Assembly (NCBI RefSeq): GCF_932294415.1
Contig: NC_065535.1
Coordinates: 92,520,862-92,584,861 of the forward strand
Direction of reading: 5' to 3'
DNA from: Quercus robur
Taxonomy: Eukaryota; Streptophyta; Magnoliopsida; Fagales; Fagaceae
Length of the DNA stretch: 64,000 nucleotides
The position numbers and the translations under genes are program-made. This document shows positions 38,646 to 62,759 of the stretch, in pieces (within the stretch, counting starts at the first letter, position 1; every line of letters begins with the position of its first letter). Under the pieces are notes generated by a model. It was not told where the DNA came from. It ran no database searches and saw only the letters and a program-made list of their open reading frames with translations.

Positions 38646-39606
38646 AATAAGCGTTTTTTTTTTCTTTCTTTTTTTTTTTTTTTAAAAAAGGAAAGTAATA
38701 AGCTAATTTAGAATGAAATGTGGCATTTTTGTTTTAATCCTGATAAGGTAAGGATAATTTTTTTTTTTTTTTAAAAGAAGATAAAAATTATACTCTAGTT
38801 TAATTTAAATATATTTAAGTGTAAAGCTCCTTTCTGGAGACTTGAACTTCGACCATTACCCCCCACACTCCAGAAACACTTATATTTGTAAAATTACCAT
38901 TACATCAAGGGTGTGCGATAGTGGCAGAGATAGTTCTTACATATTAATTAAAGAAATTGTTTGCTAACTTAAGCATAAGAGAGTCACCAGTGTGCATAAC
39001 CCCAAGTGCCATCTAGTTTTTTATTTATTTCCTGTAGGTGTTTGTGAACGAGGTGGTATCAATCCTCTTTTTTTTTTTTTTTTTTCTTGGCTGAATAGGT
39101 GGTATCAGCAAAAAGTTTTTAGTTTTAGCAAAATAAGTAAATCCCAAACAAACTCTAAATGAGCGTTTTTTTTTTCTTTTTTTTTTTTAAAGGAAAGTAA
39201 TAAGCTAATTTAGAATGAAATGTGGCATTTTTGTTTTAATCCTGATAAGGTAAGGATAATTTTTTTTTTTTTTTAAAGAAGATAGAAATTCTACTCTAGT
39301 TTAATTGAAGTATATTTAAGTGTAAAGCTCCTTTCTGGAGACTTGAACTTCAACCATTACCCCCCACACTCCACAAACACTTATATTTGTAAAATTACCA
39401 TTACATCAAGGGTGTGCGATAATGGCAGAGATAGTTCTTACATATTAATTAAAGAAATTGTTTGCTAACTTAAGCATAAGAGAGTCACCAGTGTGCATAA
39501 CCCCAAGTGCCATCTAGTTTTTTATTTATTTCCTGTAGGTGTTTGTGAACGAGGTGGTATCAATCCTCTTTTTCTTTTTTTTTTCTTGGCTGAATAGGTG
39601 GTATCA
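38593..39606 (+). repeat. Direct tandem duplication, ~505-bp unit
   Basis: Unit 1 is about 38593-39104 and unit 2 about 39105-39606. Both run from TCAGYAAAAAGTTTTTAG to GGCTGAATAGGTGGTATCA, with the intact shared block ATCAAGGGTGTGCGATARTGGCAGAG. They are nearly identical. Confidence 0.88.
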
Positions 39607-39753
39607 ATCCTCATTTCTTAGATAACTTGGACAACATGTTCTACTATTTCTGCTACATCTCCTTTTAATTTGATTAAAATATAAATATATAATTTTCCTA
39701 ATTTAATACGTAGAGAAATTTTAACAATAGTTTTCATAATAAATGCTATAGCG

Positions 39754-39780
<27 letters not shown>

Positions 39781-39795
<15 letters not shown>

Positions 39796-39925
39796 AGCTT
39801 CCAAACTCAATAGTTTGAAAACCCCCACGAGCGAGTATTTGTGCCCTTTAAAAACACAAGCTAACCCATGGTTTCATTCTCATTTCCATACCCCTCTCTT
39901 TTCCTTCTGTTACAACAATGTCCTA
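39781..39925 (+). pseudogene. Degenerate copy of the separase 5' leader/promoter
   Basis: Matches the separase upstream sequence through CTCTAGCTTCCA, AGTTTGAAAACCCC, CCCTTTAAAAACACAA and TTTCATTCTCATTTCC, and ends CAACAATGTCCT. The similarity stops just after the ATG-like triplet. The real promoter's ATTCGCGCC reads TATTTGTGCC here. Another such copy lies at 57461-57612. Confidence 0.75.
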
Positions 39926-40056
39926 ATCTTTTTTCCTGCTCATTTTCTTGGTAGATAATTTTAAAAGGACAAAACTTAGGTACAATACCTAAGTACTATA
40001 CTTAAGTCTTACTCGTTTTAAAATATGATATTTAAAGAAAAACTAATAAAATTAAT

Positions 40057-40129
40057 GGAGATGCAAGGTAACGATCCTCGTTCCTTGTGTAAGCAGCATC
40101 ACATGCTCTACCATTTGAGCTACATCCCC
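40057..40129 (-). repeat. tRNA-Ala-like repeat head
   Basis: Read on the minus strand it starts GGGGATGTAGCTCAAATGGT and ends with GGATCGTTACC and CATCTCC. The first and last seven bases pair as in a tRNA-Ala acceptor stem, and A- and B-boxes are recognisable. The anticodon arm is degenerate, so it is not a working tRNA. Relatives, all minus-oriented, lie at 50769-50841, 55014-55085, 55255-55324, 55531-55600, 55791-55861, 57715-57788, 59102-59174, 61850-61920 and 62103-62165. More degraded ones lie near 39605 and 57285. Confidence 0.7.
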
Positions 40130-40779
40130 TTTTAATATAAAAATATAATCTTTGTCCATTTTAATTAGAACTTGTTTACTATTTAAATTTTGTAAAGGTT
40201 AATCTCTTTTCTATATTTCAAAAAGTTAATTATTGCCTTTTTTTTACTTTCAAAATTACCCTAATTTAATTAACTTATCCTTATTTTTAAAACACAAGGA
40301 ATAAGGTTAAAAGCATACATTGACAAAAATTAAAAACAAGAAACCTACCAGGTAAAAATTCCCCACTAGATAGTAGATAGATACAAGCTCCTATTGCAAG
40401 AAGGAAAAAAAAAAAAAAACACTCTTAGACTTAATTTGAAATTTGACTGGACTAATATTTCCTTTTAGCAAAATTTCCGTGAATAAAACACCCTCACTTT
40501 ATTTTTTTGTTTTTGTTTAAAATTTTTTTTCTTTATGGCAAAATTTTTGGGCACAAAACACCATCACGTTAGTTTTGTTTTTTTTTTTCAAAAATTTTTA
40601 GCAAAATTTTCGGGAGTCATTCTCAGTAAAACAATCGCTTATTCTTATCAAAATCAACTTTGGAACATTCTATCAAACTTATACTTATCTACTAAAGCAA
40701 CAATTATAGCAAAATATAAATAAAAAGAATTACACTAACTTATCTTTCTACTCATTTTCTTTAGTATTATTCTTTTTTC

Positions 40780-41560
40780 TGTTAAGGGCCCAAATCATAT
40801 ATTGGGCCTTGGGCTTGGCCGAGAGCATGAGTGATCCAAGGACGAATGAATAGTAGAGGATGGTTCAGGTTTAGAATCTCATGAGTAAAGAACGAGTGGG
40901 AAGGTGATCCGAGGAGGAATTTCTCCTTGGATATGATAAGTGCAGCTCAAATGTATATTCCAATAATCAGGATGACCTTCCAAGAAGCTCCAATGATAGG
41001 GACGTGCATCATGAACATATGAGAAGGATGGGAACTCAAAAATATCTAAGAGAAAGCTACTACCACTGCATTAAATGCTCTACAACTAATCCTCTGGCCG
41101 CATTAATGACGAAGTGATCTCTGAACAATATTTTTTTAGTCTTACAACCACCCCCAAAGACTTCTGGAGGAGGCTAATGGGACAAGGATCAACATGAGTA
41201 ATCAGCTATACACGTGTAGGGCAAAGATGAAATAATAGACGTAGTATAAATTAAGGTGGAAACCCCAAAGGTGAGAGATTGGGAAATTGAGAGAAAAAAC
41301 ACTGTAGCAATCAAAATTACATTTGTAACCTATTCAATTGATTTATATTAGAACTTACCTCCTCAGACCATGTCAAGAGTGAATTTATTCAGATCAATCC
41401 TTCTTGTTTGTGCTTGATCATCTTTTAAACCCATGCTAGCCGTTGTCCAACTCATCTGGGCTTAGTTTTTTGACCCACACTCTACAAATTTATTGTACTG
41501 TGCTCACTGGGCTAACATCCCTTTACAACTTGGGCTTGGGCTCAAAACTGTGTCCCTACA
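40780..41560 (+). repeat. 5' LTR of the gypsy element
   Basis: Starts TGTTAAGGGCCCAAATCATA and ends GTGTCCCTACA, 781 bp. It is nearly identical in layout to the 3' LTR, with scattered C-to-T style differences. Confidence 0.92.
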
Positions 41561-41598
41561 ATTGACGTCGTCTGTGGGAAGAACTTGTGTGTAAATGA

Positions 41599-43800
41599 GT
41601 GCAACGGTCAACTATGGTAGGATCTGGTTCGCACCAAGTAGAGTCCACAGGTTTTCAACGACAAGATGATTTTCTTAATCTTGAGCGTGAGAGAGATCGA
41701 GAAGGGAGCATGCATACTATGCATACAAGCAGAAGCCACTCTCAAGTTGGAAGTCACGTCTCTCAAAGGCAAAACAACAATAAAGCCATGCAGCTGGAGA
41801 TTGACAATTTAAAGAAGAAGTTACGCCATGCACAACGAAAGCGAACTCCTTCCAGCTCTAATATTTCATCTAATGATGAAAAGGACGATAGTTATAGGTG
41901 AAAGTCAAGGACTCCACCAAGCGAGTCTTTCTCCTACGATGAAAAACACCATTATAAATGCAGGTTCAAGAGCCTACCTCGTAAAGACTTGGGAAATGAT
42001 GCTATAAGCAAGGCGTTGAATCAAATCTCTAAATCATCTTTCACGCACAAGATAGAGGGGGCGAAACTTCCTCGGCGATTCCATCAACCCACGTTCACCA
42101 TTTACAATGGTCAAACGGACCCTGTAGAACATGTGAGCCACTTCAATCAGAGGATGGTTGTCCATTCCAAGGACGAGGCTTTGATGTGTAAGGTGTTTCC
42201 CTCCAATTTAGGACCTGTGGCGATGAAATGGTTCGATGGCTTGAGGGCAAATTCCATAGATTCCTTTAAGGAGCTCACCCGGGCATTTGGCTCTCACTTT
42301 ATCACGTGTAGCAAGGTTCCTTGGCCCTTGGACTCACTATTGTTCTTATCCATACAAGAGGGGGAGACCCTGAAAATGTACTCGGATAAATACTAGGAGA
42401 TGTTCAATGAGATAGATGGTGACTTTGATAACGTGGTCATCAATACTTTTAAGACTGGCCTCCTAGCCGAGAACGGTTTAAGGAAATCTCTGACTGGTAA
42501 ACCTATTACCAGTATGCGCCAACTCATGGACTGGATTGATAAGTACAAAAGGGTTGAGAAAGACCAACAGCAGGGGAAAAGAAAGGTTAAGGTTATCCCT
42601 CAAGAGATAAGGAATTTCAGGTCGGATTGATACAATAACAACCGACCTCGGAGGGACTTTGCTGGGCAGTCAGGGTCTGCCAACACTCAGGCGGTTAATG
42701 CTGTGTTTCGAGAACCAATGCACCAGGTTTTGGAGAAGATTAAGAATGAGCTGTTCTTCAAATGGCCAAATAAGATGGCAGGAAACCCCATGAGGTGCAA
42801 TTAAAGCCTTTATTTCCATTACCACCAAGACCAAGGACACACCACTAAGGACTATAGGAATTTGTGAGATCATTTAGACCAGCTGGTCCAAAAGGGAAAA
42901 CTCAAGCAGCTCTTGCACCATTCCAGTGGCCAGGGGGGCCAGACAAATTCAGAACCCCGAAGAGATGATTCTTCAAGACCTCTCTTGGGAATGATAAATG
43001 TCATCTTTGCTGCTCCAGGGAGGACTGGCTACTGTCCCTCTAGAGTGATGTCTGTGACTCAGCTACCCGCCAAGGACACTAGTTCAGAGCCAAAGAAGGC
43101 TAGAGTGGATATCCAGCCGGTACTGGGTTTCTTAGACGAGGATAAGATCGGAACCATATAGCCCCATGATGATGCTTTGGTGGTCACACTCAGAATTGGG
43201 GGGTATGACGTGAAAAGGGTGATGGTGGACTAGGGCAGTGGTGCTGAGATTATGTACCCCAACCTATATAAGGGGGTGAATTTGAGACCCAAGGACTTAA
43301 CAACCTACGATTATCCTTTGGTGAATTTCGATGGGAAAATTGTTATTCCGAAGGGTCAAATCAGACTGCCTATACAAACTGGTTCGGAAGTGGTAGAGGT
43401 GGATTTCATCATGGTGGATGCTTATTCCCCCTATACGGCCATTGTGGCTAGACTCTGACTTCATGCCCTAGGAGTCGTTTCTTCTACTCTGCACCAGAAG
43501 GTGAAATATCCATCAGAGGGCCAGGTTAAAGAGATCCTTGAGAGTCAGTCCACGGCAAGGCAGTGCTTGGTGGCTGCCGTCTTACATCAACCCGAGGTTG
43601 AGTCCTTGGCCTCTGTTAAAAGGGGCTTATAGTAATCAAAAACCCCGGTGTTGCCTATCAATGGACCAGCCGAGGAGGCGAAATGTGAAGATTTAGAAAA
43701 AGTTGTTATTGGCGATGATCCGGAGAAGTTCTTTCAGATCGGGGCTCAATTACCTCCTTAAGAAAAGGAAGAGCTGATAGAATTTCTTAAGGAAAATGTT
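41599..43800 (+). pseudogene. gag and aspartic protease region of the gypsy element (broken)
   Basis: One frame runs almost throughout but is cut by stops, at 41902, 42397 and 42628, then several more. Gag similarity is clearest at 41989-42630 (PTFTIYNGQTDPVEHVSHF, then MKWFDGLRANSIDSF). A degraded zinc-knuckle-like stretch, FHYHQDQGHTTKDY, lies near 42815-42860. The protease block at about 43200-43458 reads GGYDVKRVMVD, a stop codon, then GSGAEIMYP. The stop falls right at the catalytic D-x-G. Several stops look like single C-to-T changes. Capsid and protease cannot be made from this copy. Confidence 0.85.
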
Positions 43801-43811
43801 AATGTGTTCGC

Positions 43812-45050
43812 ATGGAACGCTTACGAAGCCCAGGGGTGGATCCGAGCTTCATTTGCCATCATTTAAATGTTAATCCGTTTGTCACCCCCAAAAAGCAACC
43901 ACCTCAACACTCATCTAAGATTCATTCTGATGTTGTTAGAGACGAAGTGATGAGGCTTAAGCAGGCAAGGGCTATTAAGGAGGTTTTCTACCCCGAGTGG
44001 CTGGCCAATACCGTGGTAGTGAAAAAGAAGAATGGAAAGTGGCGTGTGTGTATGGATTTCACAGATCTGAATAAAGCTTGCTTAAAAGATCCATTCCGTA
44101 TGTCTCAGATAGACCAATTGGTGGATGCAACTACAGGCCACCCTCGGATGAGCTTTCTAGACGCCTTCCAGGGATACCATTAAATACCATTGGCCTCAGA
44201 CAACCAAGAGAATACAACTTTTGTCACTTCCACTGGAAACTACCATTACAAAGTTATGCCTTTTGGGTTGAAAAATACAGGGTCTATCTATCAGAGGATG
44301 ATGACTAGGATGTTTAAGTCCCAGTTGGGTAAGAATATTGAAATCTACATAGATGACATAGTAGTAAAGAGCAAGGTAGTATCTGAGCATGTGAAAGACC
44401 TTGGAAACATTTTTGAAATTCTGAGAAAACACAAGTTGCGCCTTAATGCCTCCAAGTGCTCTTTTGGTGTGGGGTTAGGTAAGTTTCTGGGCTACATAGT
44501 CACCCATTGTGGAATTGAAGTCAATCCTAACCAAATTAAAGCAATTAACAATCTTCAGCCACCTCGGAATCCCAAGGAGGTCCAGAAGCTAACAGGGATA
44601 ACTGCCACCTTAAACCGGTTCATCTCTAGATCAGTGGATAAATGCAAACCCTTCTTCCTGTTGATGAACAAATGGAAAGGATTTGAGTGGACAAAGGAGT
44701 GTGCCTTGGCTTTTCAGCAACTCATAAAATACCTCTCTCGGCCACCTATCATGTCCAGTCCCAAAGTAGATAAGGTCCTGTTTGCTTACATTGCTGTGGC
44801 CCTACATGCGGTGAGCTTAATACTGGTGCGAGTTGATAGTGGTGTGCAAATGCCAATTTATTATGTAAGCAAGTCACTACATGAGGCCGAGATTCGTTAT
44901 CTGCCATTGGAAAAGGCCATTTTGGCAGTGGTACATACTACACGTAAGCTCCCCCACTATTTCCAATCACACATAGTGGTAGTCTTGACCCAACTACCAC
45001 TAAGATCTCTACTTAGGAGTGCTGATTTCACGAGGAGGATTGCCAAATAA
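43812..45050 (+). pseudogene. Reverse transcriptase region of the gypsy element (broken)
   Basis: The frame differs from gag, so a frameshift lies near 43810. Reverse transcriptase blocks are well preserved: EWLANTVVVKKKNGKWRVCM, MSFLDAFQGYH, YHYKVMPFGLKNTGS and the catalytic YIDDIVVKS. The connection domain follows (KFLGYIVTHCGIEVNP, EVQKLTGITATLNRFISRS). Stops at 44181 and 45048 interrupt it. The aspartates of the active site are present, but the polyprotein is not continuous. Confidence 0.9.
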
Positions 45051-45611
45051 GGTACGATCCTAGGGGCTTTTGATATCAGGTACATGCCTCGTACCTCTGT
45101 CAAGGGCCAGGTCCTCGCAAATTTGGTGGCCGAGTTTGTTGAGCCCTCGTTGGAGGAAGTAATAAAGACACAAAGTATGGATGAAAAATCAGTTGGCACA
45201 ATCTTTTTGCAAGAGCCCTTAGTCTAGAAGATATATGTTGATGGTGTAATGAATCAAAGGGGCTCTGAAGTGGGGTTAGTTCTGATTTCTCCTGAATGAA
45301 TCACCATTGAAAAGTCATTAAGATTGGGATTATCGGTCACAAATAATAAGGCTGAATATGAAACTTTGCTGGAAGGAATGTCCATGGTCCAAAGAATGGG
45401 TAGAAAAGCAGTAAAGATGTTCTTGGACTCAAGATTGGTCATTGGCCAAGTGAAAGGAGAGCTAGCAGCAAGAGATACAAGAATGCAAGGGTATTTAAGT
45501 CAAGTTAGGCATATGCAATCAGGATTTGAATCTTTCAACCTACTACACATCCCTAGAAGTGGAAACATACATGCTGATTCCCTAGCCATGCTTGCAACCT
45601 CCTTGGCATAG
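45051..45611 (+). pseudogene. RNase H region of the gypsy element (broken)
   Basis: Continues in the reverse-transcriptase frame after the stop at 45048. KIYVDGVMNQRGSEVGLVLI carries the first catalytic Asp. After a stop near 45297 come TNNKAEYETLLEGMSM and FLDSRLVIGQVKGE with the Glu and second Asp, and the block ends NIHADSLAMLATSLA. The order is that of a Ty3/gypsy RNase H. It is not translatable as one piece. Confidence 0.85.
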
Positions 45612-46318
45612 AGCTTACCTCTGGTCATCCTTGTCGAAGACTTGTGCAAACCCACAGAGGTAAAGGGAGAGATGGTCCATGTTCACCAAGTTAGAGTAGA
45701 GCCTAGCTGGATGGACCCCATAGTACTATTCTTGAAGGAAGACATTTGCCCAAAGATAAATTAGAAGCTGATAAGATAGGGAGAAAGGCACCTCGGTTCT
45801 GGTTATCCGAGGACTAGAAAGTATACAAGCACTCTTTTTCTAGACCATATTTACTTTGCATACACTTTGAGGCATTAGAACTACTCCTCGAAGAGTTACA
45901 TAAGGGAATTTGTGGAAGCCACACAGAAGGTAGATCTTTGTCCCATAGAGCCATCACACAAGGTTATTGGTGGCCAAACATGCCAAAAGAGGCATATGAG
46001 TATGTGAAGAAGTGTGATTAATGTCAAAGATTTGCACCAAACATACACCAACCAAGAGGAGTCCTTAACCCCCTATCGAGCCCTTAGCCATTTGCTTAAT
46101 GGGGCCTACATATTGTTGGCCTTTTCCCCAAGATAACAGGGAACAAAAGATATTTACTGGTTGGCACGGACTACTTCACTAAGTGGGTTGAAGCTGAACC
46201 ATTGGTGAATATCAGAGACGTAGACGCCAAGAAATTTGTCTGGAAAAACATTGTCACACGGTTTGGGGTCCCTCGTACCCTCATCTAGGACAATGGCCTT
46301 CAGTTTGATAGATTTGGC
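45612..46318 (+). pseudogene. Integrase region, truncated
   Basis: The zinc-binding part (HKGICGSHTEGRSLSHRAI, then KKCD, stop, CQRF) has a stop between its two cysteines. The core follows: YLLVGTDYFTKWVEAEP with the first catalytic Asp, and TRFGVPRTLI, stop, DNGLQFD with the second. The sequence then leaves the integrase altogether, so the catalytic Glu and the C-terminal domain are missing. The 3' deletion joins non-coding DNA at about 46319. Confidence 0.85.
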
Positions 46319-46832
46319 CTTTCAGACCATATACTTTAGGAAAATTAACACTTTGTGACATCTATACATTTTTCCCAATTGTCAAAGCATATCCCAAATT
46401 ACACTTAACTCCTCAAATCACTAGCCTTAGGTAATTTAATGTTTTTGAATATTTATCCAAGTGTTGGATAGAATGAGGATTGCCTGCCCATTTATTCCTT
46501 ACCAGATATAATATTTATTTCTATGAGATCCAGCCTTTCCTACAGAAGGTTCAATTCTCAATACAAGTATAAGACAATCCTCTTTATTGCTGGCATGTGT
46601 TTAATTTACTTAGATTGTCAACAATGTGTTAACTTTTATTGAAGAAAGAGCTGCAAATATTCAATGGTGTATGTAGCATTGTTAAGCTTAAAAGCATATA
46701 AGATAAAGACACAGGGTGTAAAAAGAAAAGTCTTTTCATTGATTAAAAGAAAGATACATTACAAATGATGGCATAGGCCACAACAAAAGAAAATGACAGA
46801 AAGATTAAAAAAAAAAAAAAAAAATCCTACAA
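46319..46832. other. Non-coding stretch inside the gypsy element
   Basis: About 500 bases of AT-rich sequence between the broken integrase and the antisense ORF block, including an A21 run near 46807-46823. Nothing recognisable is encoded. Confidence 0.5.
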
Positions 46833-49349
46833 CTAGGCCTTGGCTAGGTGAGAGTCCTCCTTGGTGTTAGTTGCCTTGATTTTGGCACCTTCAGCATCCT
46901 TAGCCTTGGAGACCATGTCCTTGATTGTGAGAGTGTCCTCGGATTGGCTGACTTTGGCTGGTGGTTGAACCTTCTCATCCTTCCCTGCCCTAACCGAAAC
47001 CACAGCATCAAGAGAAGAGTCTTGAATGATGAGAGGCTGCTCAGGAGGAGGCAAGGGAAGGGTAACAGAAGGAGGGGGCTCTACTAGGTCCTCTCAAATA
47101 GCCTCAGGGAAGAAAATGCTCCCAGCACCCCTTAACTTGGAGTCAACAGGAATTCCCGCCCGAGTGAGTGCTTTTGCCCATACCTCGATGCAGTAGTCCC
47201 TGCACACTCCTGCTACTTCCTCTACCAACCGTGCTTTTGTGTCCACCACCCTACGCTTATAGGCTGCGTTCTCCACGGCTTCAGAGGCTTCCCTGGCCAC
47301 CTAAGCTGCATCTTTGACTTTCTGCAACTCAGCCTTGAGATCTAGAACCAGTTGCTTCTGGGTGGCCAGGTCTATTTCAGTCAAGTGGAGCAGCTGGCGT
47401 TGGTCCTCGGCCTGGGTCTGGGCATTCTTTAAGCCAGCCTCAACACTCAAATGTGCCCTATCCACCTCCTTCAGCTTATTGGTCAGCTCCATTTGATCTT
47501 GCTTAAGGGCTCTGAGGGCCTTCTCAACCTCAACACGGGAGTAGGCCTCGGCCTTAACTTCATTATGGGCATTTTGGACCCATTCCTCGGTTACAAAAAC
47601 TTGCTGGGTAACCTACACAAAAGTAGCAAAAGGGTCATAAAAAGAAAAAAAAATGATAATAACTAATAATATAAACGAAGGTACATCAAAACACTTAACT
47701 CAAAAGGGTGTTGGTTAACTTACCATAGCAAGGTCTCTCTTTAATAACATGAAGAGATCAGGCTGCCTTGTGTGCCTAAGAGCCTCCATGTCCCTAGGGA
47801 GGAGAAGAGGCTGCTCTAAGGCCTCGGCAAGAAAGGTGGCATGCCCTTTTCGCGACTCCCAAATTGTAGTGTCCTAGGGAATGAGGGCACCCTCCAGTTC
47901 TAGCCGAGGGCCCAAGTGCGTGGCCCTCGGCGCACCTCAGCCCCACCAAGTTCCTCCCTACTCTCCACGAAGGGAGTCCGTTTATCTTTAGCGTTTTTGA
48001 GCTGCTTGGCCCCCTTTGTAGGAATCACCTCGCCCTCCTCCACCTCCATCACTTTTCTTTTCTTTTTCAAGTCGGGACAAGGGAGCGGTACGACTGTGGT
48101 TACAGGGAAAAGAGGAGGAGGGGGGAGATTGGTAGAAGTTTGGGACTTGGGGGCCTCCTTAGAGGATGACCCTTTGTTTCTCCCAGCAACAAGGTCTTTG
48201 AGGCTTCTCCTTTAATTTAAAGCCATTTATTCTTATTCTTCAGAGCTGGAATCCACCCGAGCAACTATTAATCTCGGAGAATGGGTTGCAGAAAATCTAT
48301 CAAAATCAGCCTTAGAGTCCGAGAGCTCCACTGGCCTTTCTAGCACTTCTCCTTCTTCTTCGAGACGGAATTGGTCAATCTTGGCCTCAAGGGATAGGCG
48401 CGAAGAGGCTGTTTCCTCCCTCGGAGCGACTAATTCTCTGGGAGAACATTGGAGAGGCAACTCAATAAGTGGAAGGTCTCTCTGAGCCAAGAATCCAAGC
48501 ACCGAGACGTCTATGTGAGCTAGTCTAGGGTCGTCGGCTCTTATGGCTTGGCCTATGTCCTAAAATACGCGTGACAGAGGCTCGTAATCCAATATCAGAT
48601 GAACGGCCCGCAGTTGTCTATCTTCGCTTATGAATATTTCAGATCTCAGTAGTTTGTTGAGTCTTGGAACGTTGACAAAGCTGAGTCTCGGAGCGACGTG
48701 AGTTTTATCTGAAAAACATCCAAGAAGGAAATTGTGGTCAGATCAGTGAAAGCTATTATCCAAAGAAGGCAAAGTGCTAAGGGTGAGTAGAAGAAAAACT
48801 AAGAAGGCTAAAGTCCCTACCGAGGGACCTAATCCTAGGGTACTCCACCTGGCTTTCCCGCCCGAACAGGGCAGTGAAGAACATCGTGCCACTCCCCGAA
48901 GGCGATCAGACAATCATCCTTCAAGCCCTTGTTAGACTTAGGAAGGTAGGATATTAATCTAATAGCATCAGACCGGGACTTGAGATAATATCCCGCATTG
49001 GCAAGGGAATGGCACTCGTACATGTGAACGACATCGTGCCATGTGGCCCTAAATTCATCTAATCGTTCAGAGCATCTACGCTCCTTAAGACTCTAAACAG
49101 GTTGGGAGCGCACTGATGGGGGCACAACCTATGGTTGAATAGGTAGTCTCTGGTTATCCTACCCATGGGAAGTGTCATTCCTCCCTCTATGAAGGCAATC
49201 ATTGGAATGACAACTTCACCCTCTTCTCTATTTGTAAGTATCTGGTCTGGAGCACAATATTGTAGGGCTACTCCCTGTGGAATATGGTACTTCGCCCTAA
49301 AACCCTCCATACCAGCCAGAGAATCTACTAGGTGCTTAAACCTACCCAT
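46833..49349 (-). pseudogene. Antisense extra ORF block (aORF) of the Tat-type element
   Basis: Coding-like frames run opposite to pol. The first (49349-49059) begins MGRFKHLVDSLAGMEGFRAK and contains EGGMTLPMGRITRDYLFNHR. It continues in another frame (49023-48835, NAGYYLKSRSDAIRLISYLP) after a frameshift near 49060. This resembles the plant 'putative gypsy-type transposon' family found in Tat antisense ORFs. Downstream come an acidic Ser-rich region (48502-48233), a basic KKKRKV (48067-48050) that looks like a nuclear signal, and a long coiled-coil-like Ala/Glu/Lys stretch (47492-46833). Splice-like borders (for example ATG followed by GTAAG near 47723) suggest the ORF was spliced. Function is unknown. 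Confidence 0.75.
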
Positions 49350-50768: not shown

Positions 50769-50841
50769 GGAGATATAAGGTAATGATCCTCATTCTTTGT
50801 GTAAGTTGTACAACATATTCTATCATTTGAGCTACATCCCC
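50769..50841 (-). repeat. tRNA-Ala-like repeat head
   Basis: Minus-strand GGGGATGTAGCTCAAATGAT followed by GGATCATTACC. It is the copy-A partner of 59102-59174 in copy B. Confidence 0.6.
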
Positions 50842-53470: not shown

Positions 53471-53798
53471 AGGAAAATCCCATGATTTTTATGTAAAGAC
53501 AAGTTTCTTTTAAAAATAATTTGCTTGTTCAAAAGATTTTTTATTCGAAATTTCCCGTCAACTTTTGTTAAAAATTTTTGAAAAAAATCTAGAAAATATT
53601 TTTCGATCATTAATTAATTTATTTTTTAATTTAAAATTTTGAAGAAAAATTAAAAAAAAATTGAAAAATTAACCATAACATATAACAAAAGTTGATGAAA
53701 AAGCCTTAATTGAATAAACTTGAAAGTTAAAGGATTGAAATGAATGAAAACAAAGTTAAAGGACTTAAATGAATTTTGGAGTTGTCTCCTTAAACACA

Positions 53799-54246
53799 GG
53801 ACAAAATGGGCTTCTGCCCTTTTCCACAAAACTAATTAGCCTTTTGCCCTTCTTCCCAAACTAAATAGGGAAATGCCCCTCTTTTAAAACTCGACTTTTT
53901 CAAAATCGAGTTAAACCCTATAGTGACGTTTTTAAGGACCTATAGTGACGTTTTTAAGGACCTATAGTGGCGTTTCGTAACTTGATATCCATAAAATCGA
54001 GTTATAGGCAATTTTATTGCCTATAACTCGATTTTGTGAATATCAAGTTATAAAACGTCACTATAGGTTCTTAAAACGTCACTATAGGTCCTTAAAAACG
54101 TCACTATAGGGCTTTAGAATTTTTTTTTTTTTAACTCGATTTTGAGAAAGTCGAGTTTCAAAAGAAGGGCATTTCCCTATTTAGTTTGGGAAGAAGGGCA
54201 AAAGGCTAATTAGTTTTGTGGAAAAGGGCAAAAGCCCATTTTGTCC
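53799..54246. mobile_element. Foldback element, near-perfect ~210-bp arms
   Basis: The left arm starts GGACAAAATGGGCTTCTGCC and the right arm ends GGGCAAAAGCCCATTTTGTCC. The arms match almost throughout and meet at GAGTTATAGGCAA-TTTTA-TTGCCTATAACTC near 54013. Direct repeats CTTAAACACA flank it at 53789-53798 and 54247-54256. Copy B has the single uninterrupted site (TCTCCTTAAACACATCACC near 61530). It is 448 bp with no ORF. The arms contain repeated CTATAGTGACGTTTTTAAGG words. Confidence 0.9.
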
Positions 54247-54861
54247 CTTAAACACAACACCATCAAAATTTACCTTAAAATATGAGGATGGTGGTGGAGA
54301 CCATTAGAATCAAGGATAGTTGAGAGAAATGGGCAGAACTGGCTTGATTATGATAGCTTAGTAAAAATCAATTATATTAGAGCTTGAAGTTGTTTGTTAA
54401 TTTTGTTATAGAATTAAAGTATACCCGAACTATCGAGGTTGGTTTCCCCTTGATCGATTCCAAATTTCCAAATAAGATTGCTTGAGGTCAGTCGGTTTGG
54501 GACTGTGCAATAAAAGCAAATCGATTAAGAGCATTGCATTGGGTTGAGTCGTATCTCAAATCCATTGATCAAACCCTCACCACTCATCATATTTAAACAC
54601 CAAAGCCTAAGATCTAAATAACAAAATCCAATATCTAAAACACCAAAACCCTAGATATATTCACAAAACACATAACCAATGAAACCCACATCCACGTCAA
54701 ATATACCTTGTCGGATTTGCTTTAACTTTCTCTCTGACAACCTAGATTAGCGGTATGTGAAAGCAAAAGAGAGAGAAACATTGGTGAAAATTTCAGATGG
54801 GTTAGGGTTTTGCGGATCGACCACAAAGAGAGGGTGAAGAGAAAGTTGAGAGCTCATTTTC

Positions 54862-54885
<24 letters not shown>

Positions 54886-54897
<12 letters not shown>

Positions 54898-55601
54898 CCC
54901 TCATTTTCATTATAAAGGTCATCGTGCTTTAAAAAAAAAGAGATTTTGAATTGCATGGTTTTGTGTATGAATAAACCAGGGTGACTGAGTGTTTGTAGGT
55001 TTTTGTAAAAAAACAAAGATACAAGGTATCAATCCTCGTTCCTTGTGTAAGCCTTCACATGCTCTACCATTTAAGCTATATCCCCTTTTAATTAATTAAT
55101 ATATATATTTATATATATATATATATATTTATATAAACCTCATTTTCATTACAAAGGTCATTGTGCTTAAAAAAACAAGGGAGATTCTGAATGGTGTGGT
55201 TTTGTTTATGAATGAAGCAGGGTGAGTAAGTGTTTACAGGTTTTTGTAAAAAATGGAGATGCAAGATATCAATCCTCGTTCCTTGGGTAAGTCTTCCCAT
55301 GCTCTACCATTTAAGCTACATCCCTTTTTAATTAATTAATTAATTAATTAATTAATATATATATATATATATATATTGACCCTCATATTCATTATAAAGG
55401 TCATTGTGTTTAAAAAAATAATAATAATAAAAGGTCATCGTGCTTAAAAAAGAGGGTGATTTTGAATAGTGTGGTTTTGTGTATGAATGAAGTAGGGTGA
55501 GTGAGTGTTTTTAGGTTTTTGTAAAAAAATGGAGATGCAAGATATCAATCCTCGTTCCTTGGGTAAGCCTTCCCATACGCTACCATTTGAGCTACATCCC
55601 A

Positions 55602-55637
<36 letters not shown>

Positions 55638-55870
55638 ACCCTCATTTTCATTATAAAAAGTCATCGTGCTGAAAAAAAAATAGTAATAAAAAGTCATCAT
55701 GCTAAAAAAAAAAGGGAGATTTTGAATAGTATGGTTTTGTGTATGAATGAAGTAGGATAAGTGAGTGTTTGTAGGTTTTTGTAAAAAATTGGATATTCAA
55801 GGTATCAATCCTCGTCCCTTGGCTAAGCTTCCCCATGCTCTACCATTTGGGCTACATCCCCATTTAATTT
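54886..55870 (-). repeat. Tandem array of tRNA-Ala-headed units, ~240-258 bp
   Basis: Four consecutive units start near 54893, 55137, 55378 and 55634. Each has AACCCTCATTTTCATTATAAA, a GGTCATCGTGCTTAAAA block, TGGTTTTGTGTATGAATGAA, GTAGGTTTTTGTAAAAAA, the tRNA-Ala-like head in minus orientation, and an AT or ATTA microsatellite. Read on the minus strand, the unit is tRNA head, unique body, AT tail, which is SINE architecture. Copy B has only two full units (61690-62165). Confidence 0.72.
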
Positions 55871-55879
55871 AATTAATTA

Positions 55880-56271
55880 ATATATATAATTTAACCCTCA
55901 TTTTTCATTATAAAGGTTGTTGTGCTTAAAAGTTAAAACTCTAACTAAATTATTTAATTATAAACATATTTAGCCATGTTTTTAACGAAGATATGTTACA
56001 AAACTCTAACTAAACTAATCTTATGTGAGTAAAGTGTTAAATTTTAAATCAGATGTAAGCAACTAAAATTTCGACTAGACCACGGTAGTTAAATTGTAAT
56101 TTGCCAAAAATAATAATAATAATAATAATAAAAGGTCATAGTGCTTACAGCAACAACAACAACAACAACAAAAAAACTCTTCCTTCCACGCTCCCATGAG
56201 TGGGCTCTATTTGAGCCCTTTAAAAATAAAACAAACCCCACCATTTCCTTATCATTTTCAATTTTCCCTAA
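55880..56271 (+). pseudogene. Separase promoter duplicate at the copy A/B junction
   Basis: Collinear with 62410-62757: AACCCTCATTTTTCATTATA, AAGTTAAAACTCTAACTAAA, ACTCTTCCTTCCACGCT, GGGCTCTATT and TTTCAATTTTCCC. It stops within the leader, about 45 bases before the separase ATG would appear, and is fused there to the start of copy B. The E2F-like ATTCGCGC of the real promoter reads ATTTGAGC here. Confidence 0.8.
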
Positions 56272-56423
56272 GGGTGAGCAGTGGTGGCAAGGATAGTTCC
56301 TACGTATTAAAGAAATTGTTTGCTAACTTAATCATAAGAGAGTCACAGCATAACCCCAAGTGGCATCTAGTTTATTTATTTATTTATTTCCTATAGGTAT
56401 TTGTGAACCAGGTGGTATCGATT

Positions 56424-57046
56424 AGGAGTGATATTGGGTCAGGTCGGGTTTACCGTGACCTGAAACTTGACCCAACTCGAAAAATCAAGTTTGAAAATTG
56501 GGTCGTTTTTTTGGGTCTCGGGTCGAGTCTCGAGTTGAACTTGTGGGCAAGCGAATTTGTTCGTTGAACCCTTGGTCTGATCCGTTGAGCCTACTCTTCT
56601 CTTATTAACTCTAAGTCTTATTTACAGCCTTTTGTTCTTGTCAAATGGCTACCAACAACGGGTCCCACCCCACTACTATCTCAATCCACTCAATTCCTCT
56701 CTCCTCCATAAAAGACTCCTTAGTGTTCACACTCTTTCTCACCCACTTACTCTCTTCTTCCTTTTTTCTTTTTTATTTTTTTTGAAAAGCTCACCCACTT
56801 ACTCTCACTGACAATACAAACAATCCCAGAAATACAGAAAGCAAAATTAAAACCACTCTCTCTTACTTTCTCACATGCTCTGTTTCTCTCAGAACCAGAG
56901 TCTAGAACCAGAGCATGGAGTGCCTAGCTTTCTCTTGCCTCTTCTTGTTCATTTCTCTCCTCGCATTCGCAGGTAAAATCACAAGCCTGAGGCTTTCTCA
57001 TTTTCCATTTTTTGTTTTGCTAAAAGTATTTGACCAACAAAGAGTG

Positions 57047-57093
<47 letters not shown>

Positions 57094-57238
57094 GGGTTCA
57101 AAAGTAGGATATATATATGACTCGACACCGACCCAAATCCGAAATTAAGAATCGAAACCCGACCCAAATATTCTTAGACCCACCCAAAACCTGTTGGGTC
57201 GGGTTGGTCGGGTGGATCGGGTCCATTGCTTCGTCTTG
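56424..57238 (+). mobile_element. 815-bp insertion with captured promoter and signal-peptide exon
   Basis: Copy A shows the empty sequence (GGTGGTATCAATCCTC). In copy B the insert starts TAGGAGTGATATTGGGTCAG and ends near TTGCTTCGTCTTG, with TCGAT on both sides. Both ends are rich in GGGTCGGG/CCCGACCC words like the hAT-type elements elsewhere in this window, but clear inverted termini were not found. The interior carries gene-like sequence (next entry) and a T40 run at 57050-57089. Confidence 0.6.
56915..56972 (+). pseudogene. Orphan first exon with signal peptide
   Basis: ATG at 56915 opens MECLAFSCLFLFISLLAFA, a textbook secretion signal, then meets a donor CAG/GTAAAA at 56972. Upstream are CCATAAAAG (about 56707) and a pyrimidine-rich leader, so promoter, leader and first exon seem to have been carried together. 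No second exon follows before the insert ends, so this is probably a captured gene fragment. The parent gene is not recognised. Confidence 0.45.
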
Positions 57239-57460
57239 TCGATCCTCCTTTCTTTCTTTTTTTTTTTTGGCTGAATTGGTGGTATCAATCATCTTTCCTT
57301 GTATAACTTGGACTACATGTTCTACTATATGTGCTACATCTCCTTTTAATTTGATTAAAATATAAATATATAGTTTTTATAATTTAACAAGTACTACAGG
57401 CAAAGAAATTTTAACAATAGTTTTCATAATAAACGTTATAGTGCTTAAAAACAAAATAAA

Positions 57461-57612
57461 AAAACTCTAGCTTCCAAGTTATAGTGCTTAAAAACAAAGT
57501 TTGAAAACCCCCACGAGCGAGTATTTGTACCCTTAAAAACACAAGCTAACCCATGGTTTCATTCTCATTTCCATACCCCTTTCCTTTCCTTCCATTACAA
57601 CAATGTCCTAAT
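57461..57612 (+). pseudogene. Degenerate copy of the separase 5' leader/promoter
   Basis: Copy-B partner of 39781-39925, with the same AGTTTGAAAACCCCCACGAG, CTTAAAAACACAAGCTAACC and ATTACAACAATGTCCTAATC. The E2F-like site is lost here too (TATTTGTACC). Confidence 0.75.
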
Positions 57613-57714
57613 CTTTTTTCCTGCTCATTTTCTTGCTAAATAATTTTAAAATATGGAATTTTAAGAAAATAAAATAAAATAATTTAAAATATGATATTTA
57701 AAGAAAAAATTAAT

Positions 57715-57788
57715 GGAGATGCAAGGTATCGATCCTCGTTCCTTGTGTAAGCTGTAGTCACACGCTCTACCATTTGAGCTACATCCCC
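57715..57788 (-). repeat. tRNA-Ala-like repeat head (best preserved)
   Basis: Minus strand starts GGGGATGTAGCTCAAATGGT, continues AGAGCGTGTGA, and closes with GGATCGATACC and TTGCATCTCC. The D-arm (GCTC/GAGC) and acceptor pairing are intact, but the anticodon stem-loop is not that of tRNA-Ala. Confidence 0.7.
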
Positions 57789-58338
57789 TTTTAATATAAA
57801 AATATAATATTTGTCTAATTTAATTAGAACTTGTTTACTATTTAAATTTTGTAAAGGGTAATCTTCAGAAAGTTAATTATTGTCTTTTTGACTTTCAAAA
57901 TTACCCTAATTTAATTAACTTATCTTTATTTATAAAAAAGGTTTAAACCATAAATTGACAAAAAAAAAAAAAAAAAAAACTACAGGGTAAAACCCTTAGA
58001 TAGTAGATAGATACAAGTTCCTATTGTAGAAAAAAAAATATTCCCACTACCCCACATTTCTATAAATAAATAAAAAAACACTTTTAGACTTAATTTGAAA
58101 TTTGACTGGACTAATTTTTCCTTTTGGCAAAATTTTTGTGAATAAAACACCCTCACTTTATTTTTTTGTTTTTGTTTTAAAAAAAAATTCTTTTGGCAAA
58201 ATTTTTGCGCACAAAACACCATCACATTACTTTTGTTTTAGTTTTTGTTCAAAAGTTTTCGGGAGTCATTCTCTGTAAAATAATAGCTTATTTTAATCCA
58301 AATCAACTTTGGAACATTCTATCAAACTCATCTACTAA

Positions 58339-58914
58339 GGCTCCGTTTGGAAGTTCATAAGGGAAGGGAATGGAATGGAATAAAATGATCATAAGGGAAT
58401 GGAAAGGAACGGAATGGAATGGAATGTATTTAAGCAAGAGAAAGGAATGGAAAAGAATGGAATGGAATGAAATTAAGTAACCTTGATTGGATGTTTTAAA
58501 ATGAAGGAATGGAAAGGAATGGAATGTAAGTAATTTTGTTTGGGAGCAACATGGAGGGAATGGAATGGATTCATTTTATAACAATATTACTATTAGACCC
58601 TTATTTTAAAATAAATAATTGAATATACAGGGGTATTTTGGGAGTTTTAGTAAAAAAATCATTAAATCTAATTTCATTCCTTCTCATTCCTCCCAATTTC
58701 GGGGGGAATGAAAATTTGAGGTTTTAAGGGAATAAAGAGGAATGAGTGTTCCCTCCTACTCATTCCATTCCCTTCTACTTAAACTCCCAAATAAGGGAAT
58801 GGACTTTCCATTCCCTCCATTAAAACTCCCAAACAAGGGGAAGGGAAGAATATTCTAAAATTATTCTTTTTATTCCTTTCCATTCCATTCCATTCCCTCC
58901 TCCCAAACGAGGCC
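58339..58914. mobile_element. Tourist-type (PIF/Harbinger) MITE, TAA target duplication
   Basis: The termini are GGCTCCGTTTGG at the left and GGCCTCGTTTGG reverse-complemented at the right. TAA lies on both sides (58336-58338 and 58915-58917), and copy A has the empty site CTACTAAAGCAAC at about 40691. The interior consists of GGAATGGAATGG arms and their inverse CCATTCCATTCC, so the whole can fold back. It has no ORF. Confidence 0.85.
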
Positions 58915-59101
58915 TAAAGCAACAATTACAGCAAAATATAAACAAAAAGAATTACACCAACGCATCTTTCTACTCATTTTCTTTAGTATTATTCTTTTTT
59001 TTCCTACTCATTTTATTGCTAAATAATTTAAAAATATGACATTTTAAGAAAATAAAATAATTAAAAATGTAATATTTTAAGAAAAATAAAATAAAATTAA
59101 T

Positions 59102-59174
59102 GAAGATGTAAGGTAACGATCCTCGTTATTTGTGTAAATTGTACCGCATATTCTACCATTTGAGCTACATCCCC
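59102..59174 (-). repeat. tRNA-Ala-like repeat head
   Basis: Minus strand GGGGATGTAGCTCAAATGGT followed by GGATCGTTACC. It is the partner of 50769-50841. Confidence 0.6.
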
Positions 59175-59223
59175 TTTTAATATAAAAATATTAACTTTTG
59201 TCCATTTTAATTAGAACTTATTT

Positions 59224-59490
59224 AGGGTCTGTTTGGATATAATTTATTTTGCTGAAATTAAAAATTGAAAACTAAAAACACTATAGCAAAATAATTTTTA
59301 AATGTGTGAATAATACCGTGGGACCCATTTTTAATGAAAAAGTTGCTGAAAAGTGTAATTTGTGGGTCCGTGAATAGTGCACATATACACTGTTCACTGT
59401 GGAAAGTCAACATAAAAAAAAAAAAAAAAAAGGAACGAAAACGTAGCTTCGAAACGCAGACACAGCTTCAGTGGAATCCAAACACACCCT
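59224..59490. mobile_element. MITE with AGGGTNTGTTTGGAT ends
   Basis: The left end is AGGGTCTGTTTGGATATAAT. The right end, reverse-complemented, is AGGGTGTGTTTGGATTCCAC. The corresponding place in copy A (about 50886) is uninterrupted, which supports an insertion after the duplication. The interior has GTGGGACCCA and ACACTGTTCACTGT words plus an A-run. The target duplication is unclear. Confidence 0.65.
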
Positions 59491-60949
59491 CAATATTTTA
59501 ATATTGTAAAGTTTAATAATAATAATAATTATTATTATTATTATTGTCATCATCCTCTTTTTCTTCTTCTTATGAGGGGATGGTAAATATCATTTGAATG
59601 GTCATTGGTATAGATTTGAGTTATTTTTACTACAATTCATAATTAATCTAACATGTGTTTGGTACAATTTATTTTTTTTTCAGCCTTTTGTAATTGGATT
59701 GTTTAAAAAAGTTGTATCTAGAAAAAGTGAACTTTATAAAAAGTTATATTTTTTTTTGTAGAAGTGTGGTTTCAAAATATGATGCCAAACAAGTAGTATG
59801 TATTTTTTATTTTTTTAAAGTCAATATGATTACTATAAAGGATGTTATTACCATTAGGTTACTCCTAGAACCCTCAAATAGCTAGGTACTATATATATAT
59901 ATATATATATATTGTAGAAGTTTCATATCATTGCATTTTTTTTTTTCTTTCGACTTGAGTGATTGCCTGTTACAAATGGAGTGTAATAAAGGTTCCACCA
60001 AAAAAAAAAAAAAAAAAATCTAAACAATGGGGCTTTGGTTCTTTAGTTGTTTTTGTTGTCTTAAGGCTATTTGTAATTTCATTATACTGAGTGACAAGTA
60101 CTGTTTATATGTGATAAGGATAATTTGTTACTTATATTGTTGGCTATTCTTTTTTATGGGCAATTTTTTTCCTTATTTTCCCATCAATAATTATCAAAGT
60201 TATACATGCACCATCTAGTGGGTATTGGACTCGTGCTCACGCACTTTATATTTATTTTTGGAGAAATACCATTTGAGCCATGTCCCTTGTTAATGGCCAG
60301 GTTTGGGTGATAAAGGTTTCCCCACTCACTTTCTCTTATCCACACCACCCTTAAAGATTGGTTTATGGTTTGTGGGCAATTTTCTTTGTCTTTACCCGCT
60401 TATAATTATCAAAGTTTACTAGTCTTTTTTATGATGACATTTGTTAGCAGTTTAAAATTTTTTCAGGCTGCTCTAATTACCCTATGTAGATGGTACTTTT
60501 ATTGGTGGCATAGAAATTCTTGGGACAATGCAATCATGCGGGAAACTAGTGTTTATTAGTACCGGCTTAACACATTTTGTGGCATTTTACATAGAGTTAC
60601 TAGTTTTCTTTCCAATATTCCAATGGTAGTCCTACCGTTGAATACTTCTTTGTAAAAAGTCATCAACTTGTAATATATATAAATAAATAAATATATATAT
60701 ATATATTAACAAATTTAGTCTTGACTGAATTGGTTTCTTTGTATTAATATTACTATAATCATGCCAAAAGTATGCAGTATTAACCATGTTATTGGCATGT
60801 TATGTCTTTCATGCAAAATATAGCAACGTTTTTTATGACGAATTTTCATATACACAGAGTATTTTAAATATAAAATAAATTTTTTCAAAAACTTATAAAT
60901 TCTAAATGATGTCATTTTTAATAAATCTAGCTTATTCTTTTCATACCTC

Positions 60950-61125
60950 GCTCAATTAGATGACCAAAAGACACCACTGATTTTCATCGCTTCTTAAAGC
61001 TTCAATAACCACTTAAGAATCTCCCTCAATAATAATGGAGGACAAACCAATTTCATGAGCAAAAATGAGTTTTAACAACAGCTATTGTTTCCACATTAGC
61101 TACCAAAAGGGGGAGAAGGATTTCT
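60950..61125 (-). pseudogene. RNase H-like (RVT_3) fragment, copy B
   Basis: Duplicate of the relic at 53277-53470, with the same broken frame and a few extra substitutions. Confidence 0.6.
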
Positions 61126-61689
61126 TTAGACATTGAAACTAAGGAAAATCCCATGATTTTTATGCAAAGATAAGTTTCTTTTAAAAAGACTTTGCTTGTT
61201 CAAAAGATTTTTATTTGAAAGAAATTCCAACTTGGTAAAAACATTTTTGAAAACATTTTTTATTTAGACACATTTTTTTGGATGTTTGAAAGATCTTTCT
61301 GTCAACTTTTGTTAAAATTTTTTGAAAAAAAAATCTAGAAAACATTTTTTGATCATTAATTGAATTTTTTTTAATTTAAAAAATTTGAAGAAAAAATTAA
61401 AAAAAAAAGGAAAATTAACCATACCATTTAACAAAAGTTGATGAAAAAGCCTTAATTAAATAAACTTGAAAGTTAAAATATTAAAATGAATGAAAACAAA
61501 GATAAAGGGCTTAAATGAATTTTGGTGTTGTCTCCTTAAACACATCACCATCAAAATTTACCTTAAAATATGAGGATGTGGGTGGAGACCATTAGAATCA
61601 AAGATAGCTGAGAGATGTGGGCAGAATTGGCTACCATTTAAGTTATATCTCCTTTTAATTAATTAATTAATTAATTTATATATGTATAT

Positions 61690-62170
61690 ATATAAACCCT
61701 CATTTTCATTATAAAGGTCATCGCGCTTAAAAAAAAAAATAGAACAATTAAAAGTCATCATGCTTAAAAAAAGGGTGATTTTGAATGGTGTGGTTTTGTG
61801 AGTGAATGAAGTAGGGTGAGTGAGTGTTTGTAGGTTTTTGTAAAAAAATGGAGATGCAAGGTATCGATCCTCATTCCTTGGGTAAGCATTCCCACACTCT
61901 ACCATTTGAGCTACATCCCCTTTTAATTAATTAATACACACACATATATATATATATATAATCCTTATTTTCATTATAAAGGTCATCATGCTTAACAAAA
62001 AAAGAATAATAAAAGGTCATCATGCTTAAAAAGAAAGGGAGATTCTCAATGGTGTGGTTTTGTGTATGAATGAAGCTGGGTGCGTAAATGTTTGTAAAAA
62101 AATGGAGATGCAAGGTATCAATCCTTGTTACCCGGGTAAGTCCTCTCATGCTCTACTGTTTATGTCTTCT
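61690..62170 (-). repeat. tRNA-Ala-headed units in copy B (two)
   Basis: Two units, at about 61690-61935 and 61950-62165, have the same block order as the array at 54886-55870. A headless third unit continues into the separase upstream region from about 62412. Confidence 0.7.
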
Positions 62171-62692
62171 CAAATAACAAATTCATTTTGAATTAAAAAA
62201 AAAAAACTCCTAAAATTTAGGATTATTTTCCCTTCACATTAAAAAAAGAAATTACACGTATCTCTAAAATTTATCATTTTTATTTGTTAAAAAAAAATTC
62301 TAAATTATAATAGATGTAAATTATTAACTTTTACTTAAAAAAATAAAAGAGCCTCTAAGCACACGCATGAGTTTGTACTTAAAGACTAGTGTGTGTGTAT
62401 ATATATAAAATTTAACCCTCATTTTTCATTATAAAGGTTGTTGTGCTTAAAAGTTAAAACTCTAACTAAACTATTTAATTATAAACATATTTAGTGATGT
62501 TTTTAACAAAGATATGTTACAAAACTCTAATTAAACTAATTTTAGATTGGTAAAATGTCAAATTTTAAATCAAATATAGGTAACTTAAATTTTGACCAAA
62601 TCATAGTGGGTGAATTGTAATGGCCAAAAAAAAAAAAAAAACTCTTCCTTCCACGCTTCCAACAAGTTTGAAAAATTCCATGAGCGGGCTCT

Positions 62693-62700
62693 ATTCGCGC
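62693..62700 (+). promoter_or_regulatory. E2F-like site upstream of separase
   Basis: ATTCGCGC fits the plant E2F consensus WTTSSCSS. It lies about 105 bases before the ATG and just before TTTAAAAA (62704-62711), a possible TATA-type element. E2F control would suit a cell-division gene. All three duplicated promoter pieces have lost it. Confidence 0.55.
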
Positions 62701-62759
62701 CCTTTAAAAACACAAACAAATCCCACTGTTTCCTTCTCATTTTCAATTTTCCCCAACCC

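What the first reader, a model, noticed from the sequence alone, without database searches (positions are those of the whole stretch)
38907..62757. Tandem segmental duplication that breaks inside the separase 5' leader
Copy A ends at TTCAATTTTCCCTAA (56271) and is fused directly to the start of copy B. Copy B ends with the same sequence inside the true separase leader. The duplicated block thus carried the proximal promoter and part of the leader of a core cell-cycle gene. The copies differ by many lineage-specific insertions, so the event can be ordered in time and each copy gives an empty site for the other.
Basis: seen in the sequence. Interest (0 to 1): 0.8.

Follow-up and report, generated by a model that had tools for sequence, protein, structure and literature searches.

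The report
Tandem copies of the separase promoter
In what looks like an oak-family tree, a few kilobases of DNA just upstream of the essential cell-division gene separase were copied in tandem at least twice, leaving extra, probably dead copies of its promoter; the duplication is real and its events can be put in order, but it is of an ordinary kind.

Summary
Copy A (38907 or 39408 to 56271) and copy B (56270-62756) are adjacent, collinear and in direct orientation. A ends in a truncated separase promoter/leader fused to the start of B; B ends in the true leader. The copies differ by K2P 0.100 over 3372 filtered sites and carry private transposon insertions with empty sites in the partner, so this is not a haplotype artefact. 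Most block sequence queried genome-wide has its only strong matches here (exceptions listed). The gene is separase of a Fagaceae, closest to Quercus among the proteins compared. Only the true one has an E2F-like site; whether the others lost it is not settled. Two more partial separase copies exist: an inverted 3'-half pseudogene about 140 kb away and a 5'-half copy on another contig. Best explanation: non-homologous tandem duplication, then neutral decay. Low to moderate interest.

The parts
38907..56271 (+). Copy A of the tandem duplication (inner alternative start 39408), swollen by an LTR retrotransposon and internal tandem repeats
   Evidence: self-BLAST chain; boundaries read
56270..62756 (+). 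Copy B of the tandem duplication, contiguous with the complete separase gene
56270..56271 (+). A|B junction: TTTTCCCT-AA-GGGTG; 2-3 bp of microhomology (AA, or CAA before a C-to-T change) between the leader (CCCCAACCC) and the left flank (CATCAAGGGTG)
62640..62802 (+). True separase proximal promoter and leader: E2F-like ATTCGCGC 62693-62700, TATA-like TTTAAAAA 62703-62710, (CT)16.5 tract 62764-62796
   Evidence: the transcription start is inferred
56160..56271 (+). Leader copy L1 at the end of A (TATA-like box present, E2F-like site absent)
39776..39924 (+). Older leader copy L0 in A, recognisable up to the start codon (ATGTCCTAA: Met-Ser-stop)
   Evidence: 79% over 120 bp to 62626-62745, E about 1e-20 to 1e-21; start-codon stretch 11 of 13 bases, reached by 15 of 20000 shuffles
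57449..57609 (+). Older leader copy L0 in B
   Evidence: 71% over 150 bp, E 1.8e-12; start-codon stretch 11 of 13, reached by 8 of 20000 shuffles
62803..63432 (+). Separase exon 1 (TPR_ESP1); the gene continues beyond the window to about 84975 in window numbering with the C50 peptidase domain
40780..50691 (+). LTR retrotransposon inserted in A only (an RT-RNaseH frame; a weak gag match below Pfam's cut-off); B keeps the uninterrupted sequence; no target-site duplication seen, about 25 bp of target missing in A
53799..54246 (.). Inverted-repeat element in A only (ends GGACAAAATGGG / CCCATTTTGTCC, 10-bp target duplication CTTAAACACA), Mutator-like by recall; B keeps the empty site near 61539
   Evidence: read by eye
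56423..57238 (.). Element inserted in B only, apparent TCGAT target duplication; A has TCAAT as empty site; carries an exon-like signal-peptide stretch
58339..58914 (.). MITE in B only (ends GGCTCCGTTTGG / CCAAACGAGGCC, target duplication TAA); empty site in A near 40693
59225..59489 (.). MITE in B only (ends GGGTCTGTTTGG / CCAAACACACCC; flanks TTA / TCA, so a target duplication only if one base has changed); empty site in A near 50891
54864..55931 (+). 240-260-bp tandem array containing a tRNA-like element, about 4 units in A versus about 2 in B (61631-62161)

Best explanation
The 5' flank of separase was copied in tandem at least twice by breakage or replication errors with little or no homology at the join. 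Round 1 left a leader copy (L0), recognisable up to the start codon, upstream of the gene. Round 2 copied a block of about 4.8 kb, from AAGGGTG to 62756, that contained L0, the spacer and the true promoter with the first bases of the leader. The copy next to the gene (B) kept driving separase because its leader runs on unbroken into exon 1. The upstream copy (A) was left with a promoter that ends in foreign DNA and decayed neutrally. Each copy then took its own transposons. The same gene also shed a 5'-half copy to another contig and a 3'-half inverted copy about 140 kb away, both disabled, so one complete separase remains. Shown: the structure, the ranking of divergences, the presence of the E2F-like site in the true leader alone, the disabled partial copies. 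Inferred: the join mechanism, which copy is used, neutrality, that the E2F-like site matters, and that the other leaders once had it.
For: Collinear chain and junction. Most of the sequence queried has its strong matches only here. A/B K2P 0.100 [0.087-0.114], transversion distance Kv 0.041 [0.032-0.050] over 3372 filtered sites in ten block pairs, against Kv 0.009 for the LTR pair in A and 0.005 for the 0.5-kb repeat, 0.034 for the C39 copy and 0.020 for the inverted copy outside exons. L0 against true leader Kv 0.068 and 0.118 over 79 and 76 sites, hence probably older. L1 against true K2P 0.098 (66 sites) and L0_A against L0_B 0.119 (73 sites) are about equal, as one duplication of the whole block requires. 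Only 2-3 bp shared at the join. No inverted repeat between the block's two ends beyond shuffles (401 to 580 of 1000 as good) and no target duplication in the 20 bp outside them (by eye). E2F-like match in 1 of 4 leaders, the true one.
Against: Unfiltered, the block nearest the leader (55880-56271 / 62401-62756) gives K2P 0.197 and the others 0.060-0.125; filtered, its larger part gives 0.149 with a wide interval [0.041-0.313] and its leader part 0.099. L0_B against the true leader gives K2P 0.332, L0_A 0.188, so the round-1 age is poorly fixed. The left end of round 1 could not be found. A second direct repeat (57614-57837 / 58997-59224, K2P 0.160) is not explained by two simple rounds. With L0 as outgroup, parsimony puts one change at the first CpG of the E2F-like site on the true branch (T to C) rather than loss in the copies, so the site may be a gain in the true promoter; recurrent CpG decay would give the same picture. 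The site occurs by chance in 378 of 5000 shuffles of 62400-62802. Only 4 changes on the L1 branch and 2 on the true branch could be placed, too few for a test of constraint.
Confidence: 0.83

Rival explanations
1. False duplication: two haplotypes of one locus were both placed in the assembly.
For: A tandem repeat of this size is a common product of unpurged haplotypes. Only one assembly was available.
Against: Ten per cent divergence, five transposon insertions private to one copy and older leader fossils nested in both copies are far beyond usual allelic differences. Copy A ends with a truncated leader and lacks exon 1, which an allele would have.
Confidence: 0.02
2. The matches are dispersed repeats that happened to land in the same order.
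For: 61296-61525 belongs to a family with 38 further places listed (40 of 1043 candidates scored); 60578-60955 has a relative at C2:9.74 Mb; the tRNA-like stretch and its flanks recur here and in a cluster at C2:56.80 Mb. 57246-57604, 57901-59549 and 62171-62639 were not queried genome-wide.
Against: The rest of the queried block sequence has its strong matches only at this locus, and the order is kept over ten block pairs, one of them with the leader, whose other long matches lie here. The genome search skips very common words, so rarity itself is not proved.
Confidence: 0.03
3. The upstream promoter copies are in use, as alternative or decoy promoters of separase or as starts of noncoding transcripts.
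For: L0_A and L1 keep the TATA-like TTTAAAAA. They lie upstream in the same orientation.
Against: None of the three has the E2F-like site. L0 reads Met-Ser-stop. L1 is cut inside the leader and joined to noncoding DNA. L0_B lacks a base of the TATA-like box. No RNA data were available, so use was not tested.
Confidence: 0.08
4. The separase leader is a recurrent breakage site: the (CT)16 tract at 62764-62796 promotes breaks, so independent duplications end next to it.
For: Three partial duplications end within about 90 bp of each other on the gene: round 2 at 62756, round 1 near 62809, and the C39 5'-half copy near 62846.
Against: The ends of round 1 and of the C39 copy are places where similarity fades. 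For C39, shuffles scored as well against three stretches of the leader and exon start in 49, 67 and 33 of 300 cases, and a forced alignment can be drawn back to the ATG. The inverted copy breaks elsewhere (near 76954). No count of break sites in other genes was made.
Confidence: 0.18

Closest known systems
Local tandem duplications in oak genomes (Quercus robur PMC6086335, Q. lobata PMC9018854; passages seen)
   Same: Local duplications of mixed ages. Q. [quoted passage not shown]
   Different: Those passages concern whole genes. Here the copied unit is noncoding upstream DNA with a promoter and a partial leader.
Partial gene duplication with recruitment of foreign sequence (review PMC3449122, seen only in a search listing)
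   Same: Copies that break inside a gene and join unrelated DNA (recalled idea).
   Different: Here the kept part is the promoter side, with no codons in round 2 and about two in round 1.
Segmentally duplicated regulatory elements (PMC13333887, listing only)
   Same: Cis-regulatory DNA carried by segmental duplication.
   Different: No evidence of retained activity here.

Membership tests
Tandem segmental duplication | Two adjacent, same-orientation, collinear copies | tested here: met
Tandem segmental duplication | Homology not due to dispersed repeats | tested here: met
   for the stretches queried; exceptions 60578-60955, 61296-61525 and the tRNA-like stretch; 57246-57604, 57901-59549 and 62171-62639 not queried
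Tandem segmental duplication | Divergence beyond allelic level | tested here: met
   K2P 0.100 over 3372 filtered sites
Tandem segmental duplication | Junction spanned by single molecules | not testable with these tools
   no reads held
Transposon-borne copy | Terminal inverted repeats or target duplication at the ends of the block | tested here: not met
   end-to-end inverted match reached by 401-580 of 1000 shuffles; flanks outside the block share no duplication by eye
Plant separase (peptidase C50) | TPR_ESP1 N-terminus and C50 peptidase domain with GHG and GCSSG motifs | tested here: met
   exon 1 PF25110 E 4e-79; PF03568 pieces at 82053-84651 in window numbering; motifs in the translations; catalytic roles recalled
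Active duplicate promoter | Transcription from the copy | not testable with these tools
   no RNA data
Active duplicate promoter | Presence of the core elements of the true promoter | tested here: not met
   E2F-like site in 0 of 3 duplicates; TATA-like box intact in 2 of 3

The most novel reading that the evidence does not exclude
The (CT)n-bearing leader of separase is a recurrent break site. It has repeatedly ended partial duplications of a gene that is otherwise held to one complete copy, leaving an ordered series of promoter fossils.
Probability: 0.17. Interest if true: 0.45.

Novelty: new member of a known kind. Interest (0 to 1): 0.26.

Why it matters
It is a tidy natural experiment on what happens to a proximal promoter once it is cut off from an essential gene: four copies, two ages, one still attached. 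The private insertions give empty sites and a local ranking of events. The wider pattern (three partial gene copies besides the leader copies, one complete separase found) would fit a dosage-sensitive gene in a genome rich in local duplications, and can be tested across Fagaceae.

Tried and rejected
Tested and set aside: chance similarity; dispersed repeats as the cause; haplotype artefact; capture by a transposon. A promoter on the C39 copy was looked for as an outgroup for the leader: its upstream sequence shows no similarity to the leader above shuffles (49 and 67 of 300), so the leader changes could be polarised only with L0, and that polarisation is ambiguous for the E2F-like site. Absolute dates are not claimed: no calibrated noncoding rate was found, and the LTR pair is dominated by transitions (53 of 60 differences), so transversions were used for ranking. 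By K2P alone the LTR pair (0.085) would look nearly as old as A/B (0.100). A random-region control for local duplications was asked for and not obtained. Paper searches: separase with Arabidopsis, promoter and E2F (9 papers) and separase with duplication, pseudogene and plant (14 papers) listed nothing whose title or shown abstract concerns this locus; separase with Fagaceae found 0 papers; the search of three of separase, oak, Quercus, tandem duplication found 74, of which the 10 listed have no occurrence of separase.

Full report
What was checked. The window lies at C2:92520862-92584861 of a 785.7-Mb genome in 42 contigs. Self-comparison gives direct matches in constant order: 38909-39063 (or 39410-39564) with 56272-56422; 39564-40682 with 57246-58331; 40692-40778 with 58914-59000; 50692-50892 with 59025-59225; 50893-52015 with 59494-60624; 52634-53798 with 60312-61544; 54241-54344 with 61528-61632; a tandem array; and 55880-56271 with 62401-62756. 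The junction reads TTTTCCCTAAGGGTG. The leader reads TTTTCCCCAACCC and the left flank CATCAAGGGTG, so two or three bases are shared.

Is it unique sequence. Six stretches were searched genome-wide. 56100-56400: four places at this locus, the other seven short repeat-like hits of 30-70 bases. 62640-63440: the leader part matches only here (true, L1, L0_A), the exon part also on C39, C38, C1 and C5. 59550-61540: A and B, one 78% relative of 60578-60955 at C2:9.74 Mb, and a dispersed family at 61296-61525 (38 further places listed, 40 of 1043 candidates scored). 61631-62170: long matches only here, short tRNA-like matches elsewhere. 57605-57900: here and a cluster at C2:56.80 Mb, with short tRNA-like matches elsewhere. 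56425-57245: the B-only element, dispersed. 57246-57604, 57901-59549 and 62171-62639 were not searched.

Which gene. The exon starting at ATG 62803 matches separase: PF25110, E 4e-79. A concatenation of open frames finds Castanea mollissima separase over the whole query at 88% and Quercus suber at 78% over 72%. Exons run to about 84975 in window numbering and include the C50 domain. Stops appear in the main-copy matches only where the alignment opens gaps over introns or runs past an exon end (by inspection); splice sites were not modelled one by one.

A second, older round. The true leader matches not only 56160-56271 but also 39776-39888 (79% over 120 bp, E about 1e-20) and 57449-57590 (71% over 150 bp, E 2e-12). 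The two older copies continue to an ACAACAATGTCCT that aligns with the true ACAGTAATGTCCT (11 of 13; 15 and 8 of 20000 shuffles as good), followed by TAA. Round 1 therefore probably carried the leader to its start codon, and round 2 copied that fossil with the rest. The leaders pair as a second round predicts: L0_A/L0_B K2P 0.119 over 73 sites, L1/true 0.098 over 66, L0_A/true 0.188 over 79, L0_A/L1 0.239 over 59, L0_B/true 0.332 over 76. These are short alignments.

Order of events, by transversion distance, which is less affected by decay of methylated C: L0 against true 0.068 and 0.118; A against B 0.041 [0.032-0.050]; C39 copy, non-exon, 0.034 [0.027-0.041]; inverted copy, non-exon, 0.020 [0.016-0.024]; LTR pair in A 0.009 [0.003-0.018]; 0.5-kb repeat at A's left end 0.005 [0-0.011]. 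A/B and C39 overlap, as do the last two. The C39 copy would be older than the Quercus-Lithocarpus split if the Lithocarpus protein P0027 is its orthologue: of 21 columns where this separase and Castanea agree against C39, P0027 has the C39 residue at 6, of which 4 are also absent from Fagus and so look derived; at 12 it has the separase residue and at 3 neither. By overall identity P0027 is no closer to C39 (78 of 117) than to this separase (95 of 132). This is a lead, not a proof; many C39-only residues could be later decay of the C39 copy.

Copy-specific insertions. In A: an LTR retrotransposon (40780-50691), with B continuous across the site, and an inverted-repeat element at 53799-54246 with a 10-bp target duplication. 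In B: elements at 56423-57238, 58339-58914 and 59225-59489. Empty sites were read in the partner for all five. A further 0.5 kb of A (about 54345-54858) has no partner in B and no clear ends. A also holds a 474-bp repeat in three units (51530-52967) and a longer 240-260-bp array.

Function. The true leader has ATTCGCGC starting 10 bp before a TATA-like box; the other three read ATTTGAGC, ATTTGTGC and ATTTGTAC at that place. Two of the three keep the TATA-like box. Two independent losses at a CpG, or a gain in the true promoter, both fit: parsimony with L0 favours the gain at the first CpG, the known ease of CpG decay favours losses. The E2F consensus is recalled; a match arises in 378 of 5000 shuffles of 62400-62802; the nine papers listed do not by title or shown abstract tie plant separase to E2F. 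The likeliest state of the copies is inert.

Surroundings. Separase has shed other pieces. An inverted copy of its 3' half (window numbering -57812 to -73244; main 76954-87549) has a premature stop in two exons and frame shifts in others relative to Castanea separase. A 5'-half copy lies at C39:30591802-30598974 (main about 62846-71168), with introns, stops in two exons and no match for about 67.1-70.0 kb. A shred lies on C38. The C50 search found two places, the main gene and the inverted copy. Local direct duplications are common around the window (29.7-34.5, 36.5-37.2, 38.6-39.6 kb; some may be transposons), and oaks are known for local duplications (35.6% of the gene repertoire in Q. robur, passage seen in PMC6086335; also passages of PMC9018854). 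Against that background the event is ordinary in kind; what is neat is the nested, orderable set of promoter copies.

Noticed in passing
window numbering -73244 to -57812 (C2:92447617-92463049): Inverted 3'-half copy of separase, 92-95% identical to the main gene in BLAST pieces over 500 bp, with stops and frame shifts, itself split by an LTR element whose 368-bp LTRs are 98.9% identical.
   Followed up: partly
L037/L045 (C39:30591802-30598974): Genomic 5'-half copy of separase with introns on another contig and a different 5' flank; an ENA protein (P0026) matches it at 89 of 98 residues including that new 5' stretch, so it exists in other samples.
   Followed up: partly
56423-57238: 0.8-kb element rich in GGGTCGGGT near its ends that carries an exon-like signal-peptide stretch followed by a splice-like GT; five other long copies among 40 of 61 candidates scored. 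Looks like a gene-capturing nonautonomous transposon.
   Followed up: partly
57714-57788 and 61849-61920 (minus strand), with relatives in 54.9-55.9 kb: tRNA-like sequences (Rfam RF00005 at 47.6 and 40.3 bits; ARAGORN calls one with an ACA anticodon), one of them in the tandem array; a second cluster of relatives at C2:56.80 Mb.
   Followed up: no
57614-57837 and 58997-59224: Direct repeat of about 230 bp (K2P 0.160) inside the block, containing the tRNA-like piece; not explained by the two rounds described.
   Followed up: no
63427-64312 (in and beyond the window): 155-bp tandem array just after separase exon 1, also present in the C39 copy.
   Followed up: no
29728-34491: Complex nested direct and inverted duplications, 90-98% identical.
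   Followed up: no
16707-20755 (minus strand): Berberine-bridge-enzyme-like gene whose FAD-binding domain is split between two frames 2.3 kb apart, so interrupted by an intron or an insertion.
   Followed up: no
572-943: Frame with a Mago-binding domain (PF09282), a PYM-like exon by recall.
   Followed up: no
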